Shown here: positions 51,978 through 63,589 of the stretch, one piece after another
Layout: every line of letters starts with the position of its first letter
Position numbering within the stretch: position 1 is the stretch's first letter
DNA from: Desulforamulus putei DSM 12395
GTDB lineage: Bacteria; Bacillota; Desulfotomaculia; Desulfotomaculales; Desulfotomaculaceae
Direction: 5' to 3'
Assembly (NCBI RefSeq): GCF_900129195.1
Contig: NZ_FQUY01000017.1
Span: 1 to 64,000 of the forward strand
DNA: 64,000 nt
Made by a program: the position numbers and the translations under genes
Notes under the pieces: model-generated
What the model saw: the letters and a program-made list of their open reading frames with translations, nothing else
Told to the model about the DNA's origin: nothing
Databases searched by the model: none

Positions 51978-54656
51978 GTGTCTGATATTACATGTACCAT
52001 CAATGATAAATCCGTAACGGTTCCCAGGGGAACCACCATTTTGACAGCTGCAGCCATGTTGGGAATAGATATCCCGACCTTCTGCCATGACCCGGAGTTA
52101 AGCCGCTATGGAGGCTGCCGGATTTGTGTGGTGGAGGTGAAGGGCTGGGGGCAGTTGCCGGCCTCCTGTGTAACCGAAGTCCGGGAAGGGATGGAAGTTT
52201 ATACCGAGTCGGAGAAAGTCCTGGAAGCCAGGCGCACCATCCTGGAATTATTGCTGGCCAATCACCCGGATGATTGTTTGACCTGTGAGAAAACCGGAGC
52301 CTGCCGCCTGCAGGAATATGCTTATCGATACGGGGTAAGAAAGGGTGCCTTCCCGGGGGCCTGTCATGCCTACCCCGTGGAAGCAGACAATCCTTTTATT
52401 ATGCGGGATATGAATAAATGTATTCTCTGCGGCAAGTGTGTAAGGGTCTGTTCCGAGGTGGTGGGACGCAGTGTCATTGATTTCAGTTTCCGGGGCTTTC
52501 ATGCCAAGGTTGCCACCCCCCTGGACAGCGGACTGCTGAACGCCGGCTGTGTCTTTTGCGGCTCCTGCGTCGAGGTCTGCCCGGTGGGGGCCTTAACCGA
52601 AAAACAAAGGATTGGCAAAGGACGTCCCTGGGAACTGGATTCCGTAACCACCACCTGTCCCTACTGCGGCGTGGGCTGCCAGATTAACCTGCTGGTGAAA
52701 GAGGGCAGGGTTGTGGGGGCCAATGCCGCGGGCCACGGGGTGAACGGACGCCACCTGTGTGTTAAGGGACGGTATGGGCACGGGTTTATTCACCATCCCG
52801 AACGTCTTACCAACCCACTGGTGAGGAAAAACGGTCAACTGCATGAAGTGACCTGGGAAGAGGCCATCCAGGAGGTGGTCCGTCGCTTTGGCCGGATCAA
52901 GCAGGAATATGGCGGCCAGGCCATCGGGGTGCTGGCCTCCGCCCGCATCACCAATGAGGAGAATTATCTGCTGAACAAATTGGCCAGATTGGTCCTGGGA
53001 ACCAATCATATCGACCACTGCGCCCGTCTCTGACACGCTCCCACAGTCGCCGGTCTGGCGGCTGCCACAGGGAGCGGGGCCATGACTAACTCCATTGATG
53101 AAATTGCCGGGGCCGACCTGATCCTGGCCATCGGCACCAACACCACCGAAGCCCACCCGGTCATTTCCCTGCGCATACGCAGGGCCATCCAAAGGGGGGC
53201 TGTGCTGGTGGTGGTGGACCCAAGAAAAACCGAGCTGGCGGAATTGGCCCACATACACCTGCAAATCAAACCGGGATCGGACATTGCTTTGTTAAACAGC
53301 ATGGCCAAAGTGATTCTTGATGAAAACCTCTGGGACAAGGAGTTTGTAGAGAGCCGGTGCGAGGGCTTTGAGGAACTGGTGGAGGCTGTCCAGGGCTATA
53401 CCCCGGAATTGGCCGAAGAATTGACAGGGATTCCTGCGGACAGCATCAGACAGGCGGCCCGGGCCTACGCCACTGTCGGCAAGGCCACCCTTTTATACAC
53501 CATGGGACTGACCCAGCATGTCTGCGGCACCGACAACGTTCTGGCGGCCGCCAACCTGGCCCTGCTCTGCGGTCAGATAGGAAGAGAATCCACCGGCATC
53601 AATCCTCTGCGGGGGCAAAACAATGTCCAGGGTGCCTGCGATATGGGCGCACTGCCCCAGTTCCTGGCCGGCTACCAGCCGGTGGCGGACGAGACCTGCC
53701 GGAAGAAGTTTAGTGAAGCCTGGGGAGGCCCTATCCCTGATCAACCGGGCTTGACCGTCGGGGAAATGATGCAGGCCGCCATCCGGGGCAGCATCAAAGG
53801 CATGTACATTGTAGGGGAAAACCCTGTCATCTCCGACGCCGACGCCAATCATGTGGAAAAGGCCTTAAACAATCTGGATTTTCTGGTGGTGCAGGATATC
53901 TTCCTCACTGAAACAGCCAAATTGGCAGACGTGGTGCTGCCGGCGGCCAGCTTTGCCGAAAAGGACGGCACCTTCACCAATACCGAGCGCAGGGTGCAGC
54001 GGGTGCGGCAGGCTGTCCAACCGATAGGCAACAGCAAAGCCGACTGGCAGATCATTTGCGCCCTTGCCGAGGCTCTTGGCCTCCCTATGAGATACCAAAA
54101 CCCAGAAGAAATATTTAATGAAATGGCTGCCCTAACGCCTTCCTATGCCGGTATTCGTTATGAAAGATTGGAGAAGGAGGGCATCCAGTGGCCCTGCCCG
54201 GCAGCAGACCACCCGGGCACGAGCATCCTGCATCAGGAGAAATTTGTCCGCGGCAAGGGAAAGTTCCATGCAGTGGCTTACCTGCCGCCTGATGAACTGC
54301 CGGACCGGCAATTCCCGCTGGTATTAAACACCGGCCGGCGTCTGTTCCATTACCACACCGGCAGCATGACCCTGCGCACGGACTTAAGGGAAATCTGCCC
54401 CACCGAGCAATTGGATGTTAGTGTTCATGATGCCCAATGCCTGGGTCTTAACCAGGGGGATCGGGTAAAGGTGATTTCCCGGCGGGGAGAAGTAGAAATG
54501 ACCGTGAGGATATCCGAAACGGTACCCAGGGGAATGGTGTTCGCCTCCTTCCATTTTCCGGAGGCGGCCATTAATAAGCTGACCAACCATGCCCGCTGTC
54601 CGAAGTCAAATATCCCCGAATTAAAGGTGTGTGCGGTGAGAATTGAAAAAGTCTAA
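51978..54656 (+). CDS. fdhA2: Soluble formate dehydrogenase catalytic subunit, selenocysteine
   Basis: 892 aa including selenocysteine at TGA 53031-53033 (residue 352; DHCARL-U-HAPTVAGL-like context). The N-terminal HydA-like part has a [2Fe-2S] domain (GGCRICVVEVKG, ~46), a His-Cys region, and two [4Fe-4S] motifs (CILCGKCVRVCSE, CVFCGSCVEVCPV). The molybdopterin part starts at CPYCGVGCQINLL (~227) and ends in the dinucleotide-binding domain (NTGRRLFHYHTGSMTLR). No Tat signal: cytoplasmic. It should couple formate/CO2 to NAD(P)H, perhaps with ferredoxin. GTG at 51978 after GAGGAGGTGA. Confidence 0.93.
53031..53064 (+). promoter_or_regulatory. Selenocysteine UGA and bacterial SECIS hairpin (fdhA2)
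   Basis: TGA at 53031-53033. CAGTCGCC (53044-53051) pairs with GGCGGCTG (53057-53064) through 8 bp including one G-T. The loop is GGTCT (53052-53056), identical to that in fdhA and at the same distance (19 nt) from the TGA. Confidence 0.88.
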
Positions 54657-58652: not shown

Positions 58653-58664
58653 GGGATGGCATTT

Positions 58665-59393
58665 ATGAAAAAGAAGGTTTTAATTTTTGATATCTTTGGT
58701 GACCTGGCCCACTTTCGTAAATATTACTCCACATCTTCACCTGTCACATTTTCTATTATTCCACCCGTCACTGTACTGGGGGTTTTAGGGGCAATTTTGG
58801 GATTATCTAAAGAAGAAAACAAATATATAAGGGAACTGAATGAAGCAGGAACTCAAGTGGCTGTTCAAATTCTACGCCCGGTCAAAAAAATTCGCATGGG
58901 TATTAACCTGATCAACACAAAGGGGAATATTTGGGTGCCAAAGCAGAGAAAAGAAGGAGCGCGAACTCAAATAAGATTTGAGTTTTTAAAGGATGTGGCT
59001 TACCGACTATATGTAACCATGGGAAATGAGCAATTGTTTAAACAGCTGAGTGAAATGGTTTATGAGCATAAAAGCTATTACACCGTAAGCCTTGGAATTA
59101 GCGAGTTGCTGGCGGATTTTCGCTACGTAGCTGAGAAGGAGTTCATCTGGTGCGAAGGTAATCAGCATTTTGTGAATATTGTTTCCGCCGTTCCTGTTGA
59201 ATATCTTGCTGCGGACGGCATTAGTATTACTCCTGGGAAAAGGTATTTAAAGGAAAGGGTTCCTTTGCAAATGAATGATGACAGAGAAGTTTTAAACTAT
59301 GGTGACCTTTTAACCGAGACACAGGGACAGGAGCTTAACGTTAAATTAAAAGGTTATTGGGAAAGCCCCCAGGAACGTATCGTCCTAATTTAA
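58665..59393 (+). CDS. cas5: CRISPR-associated protein Cas5 (type I-B)
   Basis: 242 aa. KVLIFDIFGDLAHFRKYYSTSSPVTFSIIPPVTVLGVLGAILGL at residues ~4-47 is the Cas5h RAMP signature. It binds the crRNA 5' handle. ATG at 58665 is chosen over ATG at 58656 for ribosome-site spacing. The coding sequence is followed at once by a hairpin and an IS110-type element, separating it from cas3. Confidence 0.92.
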   Translation: MKKKVLIFDIFGDLAHFRKYYSTSSPVTFSIIPPVTVLGVLGAILGLSKEENKYIRELNEAGTQVAVQILRPVKKIRMGINLINTKGNIWVPKQRKEGARTQIRFEFLKDVAYRLYVTMGNEQLFKQLSEMVYEHKSYYTVSLGISELLADFRYVAEKEFIWCEGNQHFVNIVSAVPVEYLAADGISITPGKRYLKERVPLQMNDDREVLNYGDLLTETQGQELNVKLKGYWESPQERIVLI

Positions 59394-59398
59394 TAATA

Positions 59399-59429
59399 GC
59401 CCCACCTTAAATAAAACCAAAGGTGGGGC
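59399..59429 (+). terminator. Hairpin directly after cas5
   Basis: GCCCCACCTT (59399-59408) pairs with AAGGTGGGGC (59420-59429). The following sequence CCTTTATTA has only a short T run, so termination may be partial. If efficient, it would uncouple cas3 from cas6-cas5. Confidence 0.65.
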
Positions 59430-59576
59430 CCTTTATTAGGGAAGACCCGCGGTAAAATAGCAAGACCCTAAATTGGGAATTTTTTTGGCTGTTATGTAAA
59501 AAAGGCAATAAATATCCCTACCAGCAATCGTAATAGATTCCCAGTTATGAAAGAAAATGTAAAACGTAAAATATTA

Positions 59577-60805
59577 TTAATTCACCCTCCTCTGCTGGTA
59601 GATTTGGCCTTCACTCAGCAGCGCGAAGACCATGCGAACGAGTTTGCGGGCCGTAAGGACTAAAGCACGTTTATGATGGTGATGTCTGGCTTCGGCATAC
59701 TTCCTGCGGTAGAACTCATCATACTCCGGCTCCCACACCCGGACGGAGTTGGCCGCTTCTACAAGGTAATACCGCAGGTAGTAGTTACCTGACCTGGTTA
59801 AGGGAATATCCTGGGCGTTGAACTTGCTTGATTGGTTCTGCCGCCAGGTTAAGCCCGCGAATTTGGCAAGGCTATTGTGATTGTCAAACCTTGAAATATC
59901 GCCGATCTCGGCTATTATGCCAGCTGCGTAAACCGGCCCGATGCCTGGAATAGTTTCCAACGTGTGTGGAATTGCCTTTATCTCTTTGGCGATGGCCTGA
60001 TCGATTTTCTTTTGCTGCTTCTCAAAGAACCGGATGGTCTCAAGGGACATAGCCAGTGTAATGTCCACAGATTCTTGCATTTTCGGGTTTAAACGGTAGG
60101 AGTTAGAGCTGCCCGTTTAAGGGTCTTGGCCATCTCAGGAACATCCTTAAGCCGGTGGTTTCCGTGTTGCAGCATCAGGTCTACCAATTCTTCCACAGGC
60201 AGATTGGCGATTTCATCGGGTGTTAGGTTAGCTATAACTGCTGTGGATGCCTGACCAAACAGGTTTGAGAACGGGCACTCCTTCTGGTATGTGGAGAACT
60301 TAAGGAAAATCAGGTTTAAGGCCCTGTTCTTCTCCCTAGTGAGGTTACTCACCATGTGGTAGCGAAACCGGGTTAGCCGTTGCAAAGGTGCATACCTCAT
60401 GTCGGGAGGTGGTGTTGGACGGACTCGTCCAAACCGCAAGCAATCAGCAATAACCCTGGCATCTAAGGCATCTGTCTTGGCCATATCAGTGTAGATATTC
60501 TTGAACCCGTCAATGACCTTGGGGTTAATCACAGCGATTTCGGTGCCCAGAGCTGTTAATTGAGGGTCATCATGAAGGGCCTGGGACAGATGCCACCAGT
60601 AAAGGTTGGTGGCTTCCATGCCAATCTTGACCTTATCGACAGGCAAAGTATCAGCCACATCAACCACTTTTTCCACAAGTCTTTCGGTTCCAGGGAGGTC
60701 GTTGGAAACAGAGAATCCACAGACATCATCACCGGTGTCATCAATGATTCTGACTACATTGGTGTCGGCTTCTATGTCAATGCCGACAAAAAGAGTACGG
60801 CCCAT
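59577..60805 (-). pseudogene. IS110-family recombinase, frame-shifted
   Basis: Two adjacent frames make one protein. The first (ATG at 60805 after AAAGGAGGTG, stop near 60089; FVGIDIEADTNVVRIIDDTGD) holds the DEDD/RuvC-like N-terminal domain. The second (60080-59577; IPGIGPVYAAGIIAEIGDISRF, LTRSGNYYLRYYLVEAANSV) holds the C-terminal domain with the serine region. They are broken at GTTTAAAC (60087-60094, minus strand) by a shift of +2 or a lost base. The sense strand opposes cas transcription. Probably inactive, unless the break is a sequencing error. Confidence 0.85.
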
Positions 60806-61100
60806 GTTATCAACACCTCCTTTCACGTGAACTTAAAGAAACCAAAATTTTGGGGTATCCCTGGGAACCTGGTGTAACAGCAACCTTGCCGATGAGCACT
60901 CACCCAAAGAGATTGGTGTGATGCTCCTTGCTGAAGGGAGAACCTCTTTGGGCGTGCAACCCGCGCGTAAGCGGTTGCCACCAGGCCCGGGGAGCAGTCT
61001 TTCCAAGCACTTAAAAGTGCAGGGGGCGAAAAACTGCCCCACCATCGGTTCTACCGTGATTGTCCCAGGGTATAACCCAAAGGTCAATTACTTTAAAAAA
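60806..61100 (-). ncRNA. Structured noncoding end of the IS110 element, bridge-RNA candidate
   Basis: About 290 nt upstream of the recombinase start without an ORF. It contains several stem-loops: CCCAAAGAG/CTCTTTGGG (60903-60911, 60944-60952), GCAACC...GGTTGC with CGC/GCG below it (~60956-60978), GCACTT/AAGTGC (~61009-61022) and GGGGC/GCCCC (~61023-61039). IS110-group elements carry their bridge RNA in this left end, before the recombinase gene. The exact limits of the element were not determined, as the family lacks terminal inverted repeats. Confidence 0.5.
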
Positions 61101-61103
61101 TAA

Positions 61104-61138
61104 ATATGACCAACTGGAAATTATTCCGCTGGTCATAT
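61104..61138. repeat. Inverted repeat upstream of cas3
   Basis: ATATGACCA (61104-61112) and TGGTCATAT (61130-61138), 9-bp arms, lie just before the cas3 ribosome site AAGGGGG (61144-61150). It could mark the original cas5-cas3 junction or fold in the cas3 leader. Confidence 0.5.
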
Positions 61139-61159
61139 CATACAAGGGGGTAAAGAATA

Positions 61160-63589
61160 TTGCCATTTTTAAAAAGCCATCCGGATCAGGAACTAAAGGA
61201 CCATTTATTAGGTGTGTGGCAGCTGGCCAGACAACTATGGGGAGACAGAAAGATTTTACCTTGGGATTCCAAGTTGTTAGGAGATTTACTGGCTATTGTT
61301 ACCCTAACTCATGATTTTGCTAAGGCTACCCGTTACTTTCAAAATTACATCACCTCGCCTGAGTTAGGTCAAAAAAAGAGCGGTCCCCTCGAGAGTCATG
61401 CCTTGCTGTCGGCCATTGTGGGATACTTTATGGCAAAAACCTATTTAAAAGACCACCCTGATAACAAAAGGCTTAGCTATATGGTTTTTTTAGCTATTAA
61501 ACGCCATCACGGAAACTTACGGGATATTACCGATGAGTGTGCCGTTTTCGGTGATAAGGAACAAGAATTGTTGCTAAAGCAGGTAGAGGCCATTGATTTT
61601 TCCTTATTAAAGGAAACCTGGCAGTCAATTGACCCTCAGTTGCCGTTAACCACGAGCTTTGGTTCTATATTGACGCAAGAACTGCTAAAAGAATGGGTGT
61701 ATACTTTTAAGGATGAATTAAGACAGGTTCGGCGAGCCTGGCTTAGAAGTGGTAGTAATGACTTCCTTTTAGAGGTTGACCAACTAAGGGTCCCAAATAC
61801 CACGCACCAACAAAGTCAACTGCAGGATTACTTCCGGTTTCTTATTTTATATTCCTTACTACTGGACGCAGATAAATGCCAGGTGGGAGTGAGGGACTAC
61901 CGGTTACATATTGTCAAATTACCGGCCGATTTAGTAGATACCTTTAAGAATAAACAAGACTGGGAGATTCAAGGCCTTAATGCTTTACGTGAGGAAGCGT
62001 ATCAAGAAATAGCGGGTAATCTAGATTTGGCAGATAAAGGGAACATATTTTCCATTACGCTGCCTACCGGTTTGGGCAAGACTTTGGCTGCTTACAACTT
62101 CGCCTTTAAATTAAGGGAAAAGCGTTTACAGGAAAGAGGAACCGCACCGAAAATTATCTATACTCTACCATTTTTGACAGTAATTGATCAAAATTACCAA
62201 ATATTGTCAGATATATTGGAAAATCAGACTGGACATCATATTTTAATCAAGCATCACCATCTTACAGACCCTGTTTATAATATGAGGACAGGGCATGAAG
62301 ATGAAACAAGTTATTCTGCTAACGCAGCAAAACTTCTTATCGAAGGTTGGTCCTCAGAAATCGTTGTTACTACCTTCGTTCAGTTATTTGAAACTTTAAT
62401 CGGCTGGCGCAACAGCACCTTAAGAAAATTTCACCGCTTGGCTCATGCCATCATTATCCTTGACGAAATTCAAGCCCTGCCCATTAAATACTGGCCGCTG
62501 GCTCAGCAGATGTTGGAATTTCTGGCTGGACAAATGAATACAGATATTATTTTGGTGACAGCTACCCAACCGAAAATTTTTTCAGGGTTGAGTAAAGTAA
62601 TAGAACTGGTTCAGCCCCAAAAATATTTTAGCCAGATGGGGCGTGTACGATTGGAAATCAACGTGAACCGCCGCACTATAGATGAGTTTGTGGAAGATGA
62701 ACTCCGGGAACAGCTTTCTGCTAACCCGGAAAAAAGCTTTTTATTTATTTTGAATACTGTAAGTTCAGCCAAGGAGCTTTACCGTCAATTAAAGAACTTA
62801 ACCAGCGAACCTATTGCTTTTTTGTCCACCGGGGTCGTTATGAAGGAAAGGAAAAAGCGTATTGAAGATATCCGCGATAAAAAATACCGTTTGGTAGTGA
62901 GTACACAACTGGTTGAAGCGGGGGTGGATATCGATTTTGATATCGTTTACAGGGACCTGGCTCCTATGGATTCCATCAACCAGGCAGCCGGTCGTTGTAA
63001 CCGTCACGGGTTAGGAAACGGCATTGTCCGTATTATTTCTTTAGTAGCCTCTGACAGGGGACGTTCCTATGCCCATATGATTTATGATGATGTAGCTTTG
63101 GATATAACCAAAAAAATTCTTGAAAACTATAAAGAGGTTGATGAGAAGGAGTTTCTTAATTTAATTGACCTATATTTTACCCAGGCCAAATCCAAAATGC
63201 TATTGAATGAGTCCCACAAAATATTACAGGCAGTCCAAAGACTTTGTTTTTTTGCTGAGGATGAAACCAAGACAAGCGTAAGCGATTTTCAACTGATCAA
63301 GGAAAAAGGTCACCGGGAGAATGTGTTTGTAGAATTGGACAAAGAGGCAGAGGAGGTATGGGCTGAATACGAAAGGATCATTCAAATAAATGGCTTCTAT
63401 GAGAAACAGGAAAAGTTTAATGCCATTAAAAAAATATTTTACGAATATGTAATTTCTATCCCCGTTTCACGATTAACGGACCTGCCGCCAGAGGTCAATC
63501 ATTTTCGTTACGTTTGCAGCTCACAAATAGAATATTATTATGACCGGAACTTGGGTTATGACAGCAAAGGGGCAACCATTATCTTTTAA
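61160..63589 (+). CDS. cas3: CRISPR-associated helicase/nuclease Cas3 (HD + SF2)
   Basis: 809 aa. N-terminal HD nuclease: DHLLGVWQLA (~14), LTHDFAKATRYF (~50, the HD pair), SHALLSAIVGYF and KRHHGNLRD. Helicase: LPTGLGKTLAAYNFAF (Walker A, ~302), IIILDEIQALP (DEIQ, ~433), VTATQPKIF (~463) and QAAGRCNRHG (motif VI, ~611). It degrades the displaced strand after Cascade binding. TTG at 61160. Now preceded by the IS110 element, so its expression may depend on a new promoter. Confidence 0.93.
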   Translation: MPFLKSHPDQELKDHLLGVWQLARQLWGDRKILPWDSKLLGDLLAIVTLTHDFAKATRYFQNYITSPELGQKKSGPLESHALLSAIVGYFMAKTYLKDHPDNKRLSYMVFLAIKRHHGNLRDITDECAVFGDKEQELLLKQVEAIDFSLLKETWQSIDPQLPLTTSFGSILTQELLKEWVYTFKDELRQVRRAWLRSGSNDFLLEVDQLRVPNTTHQQSQLQDYFRFLILYSLLLDADKCQVGVRDYRLHIVKLPADLVDTFKNKQDWEIQGLNALREEAYQEIAGNLDLADKGNIFSITLPTGLGKTLAAYNFAFKLREKRLQERGTAPKIIYTLPFLTVIDQNYQILSDILENQTGHHILIKHHHLTDPVYNMRTGHEDETSYSANAAKLLIEGWSSEIVVTTFVQLFETLIGWRNSTLRKFHRLAHAIIILDEIQALPIKYWPLAQQMLEFLAGQMNTDIILVTATQPKIFSGLSKVIELVQPQKYFSQMGRVRLEINVNRRTIDEFVEDELREQLSANPEKSFLFILNTVSSAKELYRQLKNLTSEPIAFLSTGVVMKERKKRIEDIRDKKYRLVVSTQLVEAGVDIDFDIVYRDLAPMDSINQAAGRCNRHGLGNGIVRIISLVASDRGRSYAHMIYDDVALDITKKILENYKEVDEKEFLNLIDLYFTQAKSKMLLNESHKILQAVQRLCFFAEDETKTSVSDFQLIKEKGHRENVFVELDKEAEEVWAEYERIIQINGFYEKQEKFNAIKKIFYEYVISIPVSRLTDLPPEVNHFRYVCSSQIEYYYDRNLGYDSKGATIIF

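What the first reader, a model, noticed from the sequence alone, without database searches (positions are those of the whole stretch)
60806..61100. Candidate bridge RNA in the IS110 element
A ~290-nt ORF-free stretch before the IS110 recombinase shows at least four stem-loops. IS110-family recombinases are guided by a bridge RNA encoded in the noncoding end. Here the element sits inside a cas operon, so the target-binding loop should match the cas5-cas3 junction.
Basis: partly seen in the sequence, partly recalled or inferred. Interest (0 to 1): 0.6.

Follow-up and report, generated by a model that had tools for sequence, protein, structure and literature searches.

The report
Bridge RNA of Shine-Dalgarno-targeting IS110 element
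The stretch encodes, on the minus strand, the guide ("bridge") RNA of a jumping DNA element that sits just in front of a CRISPR cas3 gene; its guide loops match that site, and its relatives likewise aim at the ribosome-binding sites of genes, as another IS110 element, IS900, was already reported to do.

Summary
Window 59445-61144 (minus strand) is an IS110-group element with CT core. Its 5' noncoding end (~60853-61134) folds into a structured RNA (z -5.4). The target loop (CGCCCC-CT ... GGAA-AG) matches its own insertion site TTACCCC-CT-TCCC, the antisense of the cas3 Shine-Dalgarno (SD). Across 17 related elements the left target guide tracks each element's own left flank, and across 10 the right guide tracks the right flank (permutation p ~1e-5 and ~1e-4). 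Donor guides also follow donor ends in two divergent relatives. A covariance model built here finds held-out bridge RNAs beside 44-52%-identical recombinases. The circle junction forms TTGACA-17-TATGAT in relatives (TTGCTA in this copy). Empty orthologous sites place a sister insertion precisely 5' of an SD. This copy is probably dead: its recombinase has a 1-nt frameshift. Beyond the finding: the clade targets antisense SDs, and left-end fragments often persist as gene leaders. SD/start targeting has precedent in IS900, so this is a new member of a known kind. No RNA was measured.

The parts
59445..61144 (-). IS110-group element (left end at 61144, right end at 59445)
   Evidence: Junctions defined by 5 full relatives and 3 Moorella copies
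61145..61146 (-). core dinucleotide CT, left junction
59443..59444 (-). core dinucleotide CT, right junction
60853..61134 (-). predicted bridge RNA (ends approximate; no transcript data)
   Evidence: fold z -5.4, consensus structure, covariation
61108..61134 (-). 5' hairpin GACCA...TGGTC
60991..61040 (-). target-binding hairpin: stem GGGGCAGTT/GACTGCTCC with internal loop and apical hairpin 61007-61020
61021..61031 (-). left target guide TTTCGCCCC-CT; matches target CTTTACCCC-CT
60999..61006 (-). right target guide TTGGAA-AG; pairs with CT-TCCC (5 of 6)
60868..60987 (-). donor-binding hairpin
60959..60967 (-). left donor guide CGCGCGGGT; matches right-end donor ACCGCGGGT-CT
60885..60888 (-). 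right donor guide CAAG; pairs with CT-TG at the left end
   Evidence: short, tentative
61137..61142 (-). -10 box TATGAT at the left end, half of the circle-junction promoter
59458..59463 (-). -35 box at the right end, TTGCTA here, TTGACA in most relatives; 17-nt spacing to the -10 in the circle
60089..60805 (-). recombinase N-terminal part (PF01548), frameshifted by a 1-nt deletion near 60105
59577..60080 (-). recombinase C-terminal part (PF02371)
61145..61150 (+). AGGGGG, Shine-Dalgarno of cas3, the target site (left intact)
61160..63589 (+). cas3 (HD + helicase), gene next to the insertion
58656..59393 (+). cas5b, gene on the other side of the insertion

Best explanation
The stretch is the 5' noncoding end of an IS110-group insertion sequence and encodes its bridge RNA on the minus strand. 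Inferred working: after excision, a circle joins right end-CT-left end, which builds a sigma-70 promoter (TTGACA-17-TATGAT in intact relatives) that drives the RNA; the RNA binds the IS110 recombinase; its first internal loop pairs with both strands of a target centred on CT inside an antisense Shine-Dalgarno, its second loop with the circle junction; recombination then places the element directly upstream of the SD of a gene, antisense to it, with the SD and start codon intact. In this window the target was the SD of cas3. Shown here: the ends, core, guide-target and guide-donor agreement across relatives, structure covariation, SD placement. Inferred: transcription, protein binding, recombination. 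This copy is probably immobile by itself (frameshifted recombinase, weakened -35).
For: Element ends and CT core from full-length relatives. Left guide versus own left flank in 17 elements: 70 of 85 matches at 5 non-core positions versus 56 expected, p ~1e-5; right guide versus own right flank in 10 elements: 25 of 40 versus 13.4, p ~1e-4. Only this element among the 17 has CCCCC in the guide, and its target is CCCCC. Donor changes are followed: relatives with donor CCCCGGGT and CCGTGAGT have left donor guides GCCCGGGT and GCGTGAGC, and a left end starting CG instead of TG has right donor guide CGAG instead of CAAG. Fold z -5.4; 8 pairs with changes on both sides versus 1.9 in shuffles, and slid controls collapse. 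Model finds held-out RNAs in front of 44-52%-identical recombinases, E ~1e-7. 32 of 47 left ends have a start codon 6-19 nt on and an ORF behind it, versus 10.5% of random positions. Empty orthologous site in four congeners.
Against: No RNA or recombination was measured. In this copy the left guide has mismatches at non-core positions -5 and -6, and the right guide one at position 2. The right donor guide is only 4 nt. Permutation assumes independent elements, but they are related. Guide windows were chosen after inspection, though at homologous positions. Targets in two elements (L052, G078) fit poorly. The only uninterrupted cas5-cas3 junction examined closely is from a genome with 60%-identical Cas5.
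Confidence: 0.93

Rival explanations
1. The structured stretch is only a 5' leader or attenuator of the recombinase mRNA and has no guide function.
For: It lies upstream of the recombinase and has strong hairpins; a TTGACC-17-GACAAT match inside it could start a leader transcript.
Against: A leader would not carry two variable patches that follow each element's own left and right flank, nor donor patches that follow the ends.
Confidence: 0.04
2. The left-end hairpin plus SD is a host regulatory leader of cas3 and other genes, and the element merely lies beside it.
For: 45-70 nt pieces with this hairpin sit before SDs of many genes without a recombinase.
Against: All full elements carry it at the same end; orthologous sites without insertion have the SD but no hairpin; truncated copies break at different points, some fused to internal or right-end element sequence (L052, L063, L149).
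Confidence: 0.02
3. The match to the SD is only shared pyrimidine-rich composition, without guide-target pairing.
For: The targets are all C/T-rich, which inflates chance matching (56 of 85 expected under permutation).
Against: Permutation keeps composition, and the observed match is still beyond it; right flanks are not SD-like and match as well.
Confidence: 0.02

Closest known systems
IS621 and the IS110 group with bridge RNA (Durrant et al. 2024, PMC11208160)
   Same: DEDD/Transposase_20 recombinase, noncoding left end, 5' hairpin then target loop then donor loop, CT core, promoter formed across the circle junction, variable target loop and conserved donor loop.
   Different: Target is an antisense Shine-Dalgarno; the RNA is longer, with a closing stem; donor right guide appears to be 4 nt; this copy is frameshifted.
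IS900 (Mycobacterium avium subsp. paratuberculosis, IS110 family; PMC8141618, citing Doran et al. 1997)
   Same: Targets translation initiation signals; reported motif CATGNNNNNNTCTCCTT reads as an antisense start codon plus antisense SD, as here (CAATATTCTTTACCCCCTT).
   Different: Different host phylum and sequence; the text read gives no guide RNA explanation for the motif. Homology of guides was not tested here.
IS1111/IS110 seekRNA elements (Siddiquee et al. 2024, PMC11187229)
   Same: Noncoding RNA with two target-matching stretches.
   Different: IS1111 members carry the RNA downstream of the gene; here it is upstream.

Membership tests
IS110 group of the IS110 family with bridge RNA | recombinase with PF01548 and PF02371 domains | tested here: met
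   (NF033542 'IS110 family RNA-guided transposase' on intact relative L017); in the window split by a frameshift
IS110 group of the IS110 family with bridge RNA | long noncoding end upstream of the gene (left end), short right end | tested here: met
   left end 339 nt (60806-61144), right end 132 nt (59445-59576)
IS110 group of the IS110 family with bridge RNA | short core at both junctions, scarless insertion | tested here: met
   CT at both ends; empty site in congeners for sister insertion
IS110 group of the IS110 family with bridge RNA | RNA with target-binding loop matching both flanks of its own target | tested here: met
IS110 group of the IS110 family with bridge RNA | donor-binding loop matching the element's ends | tested here: met
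   left donor guide 7 nt, right donor guide only 4 nt
IS110 group of the IS110 family with bridge RNA | conserved secondary structure with covariation | tested here: met
IS110 group of the IS110 family with bridge RNA | sigma-70 promoter formed across the circle junction | tested here: met
   TTGACA-17-TATGAT in relatives; TTGCTA-17-TATGAT here; by sequence only
IS110 group of the IS110 family with bridge RNA | RNA is expressed, binds the recombinase and directs recombination | not testable with these tools
   needs RNA-seq and recombination assay
Rfam RNA family | match to a curated model | tested here: not met
   no relevant match in Rfam 15

The most novel reading that the evidence does not exclude
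A clade of IS110 elements has evolved a target loop that imitates the anti-Shine-Dalgarno tail of 16S rRNA, so that it can insert harmlessly in front of almost any gene; after the element decays, its left-end hairpin stays behind as the gene's 5' leader and in some genes has become a regulatory hairpin. The same loop could also pair with SDs of mRNAs, including that of its own recombinase.
Probability: 0.15. Interest if true: 0.65.

Novelty: new member of a known kind. Interest (0 to 1): 0.45.

Why it matters
It gives a guide-level explanation for why some IS110 elements (IS900 being the old example) land on translation-initiation signals: the bridge RNA's target loop is an anti-SD-like sequence. 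It supplies four guide segments, core, promoter and natural guide variants that can be tested directly, and shows a mobile element choosing a generic, probably mild site. For the window it also shows that cas3 of a type I-B system is now preceded by a 1.7-kb antisense insertion while keeping its SD.

Tried and rejected
Rfam search: only chance hits. Viral-contig scan with the recombinase: none. Plasmid records: only distant IS110 genes. Second full copy in the same genome: none, only three left-end fragments. Direct DNA orthologue of the empty cas5-cas3 site in the genus: not available; nearest is a 60%-identical Cas5 genome. An outward promoter for cas3 in the left end: none found by the consensus scan. 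L020 (HU-like gene) as an empty-site test: flanks not jointly conserved in congeners. The idea that the 45-70-nt hairpin repeats are an independent host repeat was dropped. Distant elements with 700-800-nt left ends (L102, L110, L119) sit at SDs as well, but their guide loops were not worked out.

Full report
What is there. The recombinase lies on the minus strand as two ORFs, 60826-60089 (PF01548) and 60080-59577 (PF02371). Alignment with the intact 409-aa relative in L017 shows a single 1-nt deletion near 60105 that breaks the frame; the start by homology is ATG 60805 with AAAGGAGG at 60816-60823. The surrounding operon is type I-B: cas6, cas8b (TM1802/Csh1), cas7 (Csh2), cas5b, then the element, then cas3. 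The own genome (3.1 Mb, 65 contigs) has no other full copy, only three fragments of the left end.

Ends and core. Matches were found in 57 of 298 related genomes (own included), five others of them full length at 79-89% identity, plus Pelotomaculum and Moorella records. All start TGTATGATATGACCA (or a near variant) after a variable flank ending in CT, and all end TTGACATTTTACCGCGGGT-CT (or a near variant) before a variable flank. The element is therefore 59445-61144 with CT core at 59443-59444 and 61145-61146 (minus strand). Joined, right end-CT-left end reads TTGACA-17 nt-TATGAT, as a circle-junction promoter should; in this copy the first box is TTGCTA.

The RNA. 60840-61130 of the minus strand folds at -120.8 kcal/mol, shuffles -90.0 +/- 5.7, z -5.4. 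Eleven homologues give a consensus with a closing stem, a target hairpin with internal loop, and a donor hairpin; the 5' hairpin GACCA...TGGTC is kept in nearly all left ends. On the 172-column alignment of the two guide hairpins, 96% of cells pair; 8 pairs change on both sides versus 1.9 in shuffles; sliding the partner by 1-3 columns drops pairing to 36-54%. The most variable patches inside the target hairpin are the two sides of its internal loop.

Target guides. The left patch equals the top strand of the left flank plus CT, the right patch is the reverse complement of CT plus the right flank. Own site: CTTTACCCC-CT-TCCCTAA; own guides TTTCGCCCC-CT and TTGGAA-AG. Other cases: ACTCCT guide at ACTCCT site (G098, G034, G070), CAACTCCT at CAACTCCT (G030), ATCTCTCCT at ATCTCTCCT (G109). 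Permuting flanks among elements: left p ~1e-5 (17 elements), right p ~1e-4 (10 elements). The elements are related, so these are not strict probabilities.

Donor guides. In the family, donor ACCGCGGGT-CT-TG faces CGCGCGGGT and CAAG in the RNA. G078 has donor CACCCCGGGT-CT and guide GCCCGGGT. The 48%-identical element in G073 (L106) has donor ACCGTGAGT-CT-CG, guide GCGTGAGC and CGAG. Both donor sides thus change together with the RNA. This part rests on two divergent relatives and was read by eye.

What it aims at. Reading outward from the left end, the flank is an SD: AGGAGG, AGGAGT, AGGGGG. In 32 of 47 left ends, distant relatives included, a start codon lies 6-19 nt on and opens an ORF of at least 60 codons (or one running off the stretch examined), against 10.5% of random positions. 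Elements at 42-48% recombinase identity in G006, G032 and G040 show the same. In G003 a 48-bp internally deleted copy sits in front of AAGGAGTGATG of a nucleotidyltransferase-like gene; the window's own genome and three other congeners have the uninterrupted site. For the window itself the nearest uninterrupted cas5-cas3 junction is in G043: cas5, terminator-like hairpin, AGGGAGG, cas3.

Left-end fragments. Exact left ends occur 17 times in the genomes of the order (G000-G112), exact right ends 7 times. The left end lies next to the SD and becomes part of the gene's leader; deletion from the other side would leave it. Whether any has a function is open.

Distribution of the RNA. The covariance model built from 11 members finds the RNA at the expected place in front of held-out recombinases of 44-52% identity (L107, L120, L121, E 2-3e-7) and in L023 and L049, and exactly once in the 64-kb window, at 60880-61045 minus (the window sequence is one of the model's members).

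Known or new. Bridge RNAs of IS110 elements are established (PMC11208160; PMC11187229). SD/start targeting by an IS110 element has precedent in IS900: PMC8141618 reports the motif CATGNNNNNNTCTCCTT and cites Doran et al. 1997 on translation initiation signals. I found no paper in the held library that joins the two, but that library is partial. The finding is a new, well-supported member of a known kind, with a notable target.

Noticed in passing
window 51978-54656 (+): A formate dehydrogenase-like gene is split by one in-frame TGA at codon 352 (HCARL*HAPTV), a position that suggests selenocysteine; reading through gives one 892-residue frame. No SECIS search was done.
   Followed up: partly
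window 59399-59437 (+): A terminator-like hairpin (CCCCACC...GGTGGGG, CCCTTTATT) lies between cas5 and cas3, and a different hairpin lies at the same place in G043 (L077), so cas3 may be set apart from the upstream cas genes by read-through in both. The terminator scan did not list it.
   Followed up: no
L149 / L155 (G003), own genome C17, C23, C36; L054, L056, L061, L064, L069: Short remnants of the element's left end (45-110 nt, or a 48-bp copy with both ends) sit directly upstream of SDs of unrelated genes and mostly keep the hairpin; one (L144) has a paired change in the stem. Possible leader hairpins or trans-mobile miniature elements.
   Followed up: partly
window 61059-61087 (-): A conserved TTGACC-17-GACAAT stretch inside the left end could be a second, internal promoter active in the integrated state.
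   Followed up: no
window 60816-60823 (-): The recombinase's own SD (AAAGGAGG) is complementary to the family's left target guide ACCTCCT, so the RNA might pair with its own mRNA or the element might target itself.
   Followed up: no
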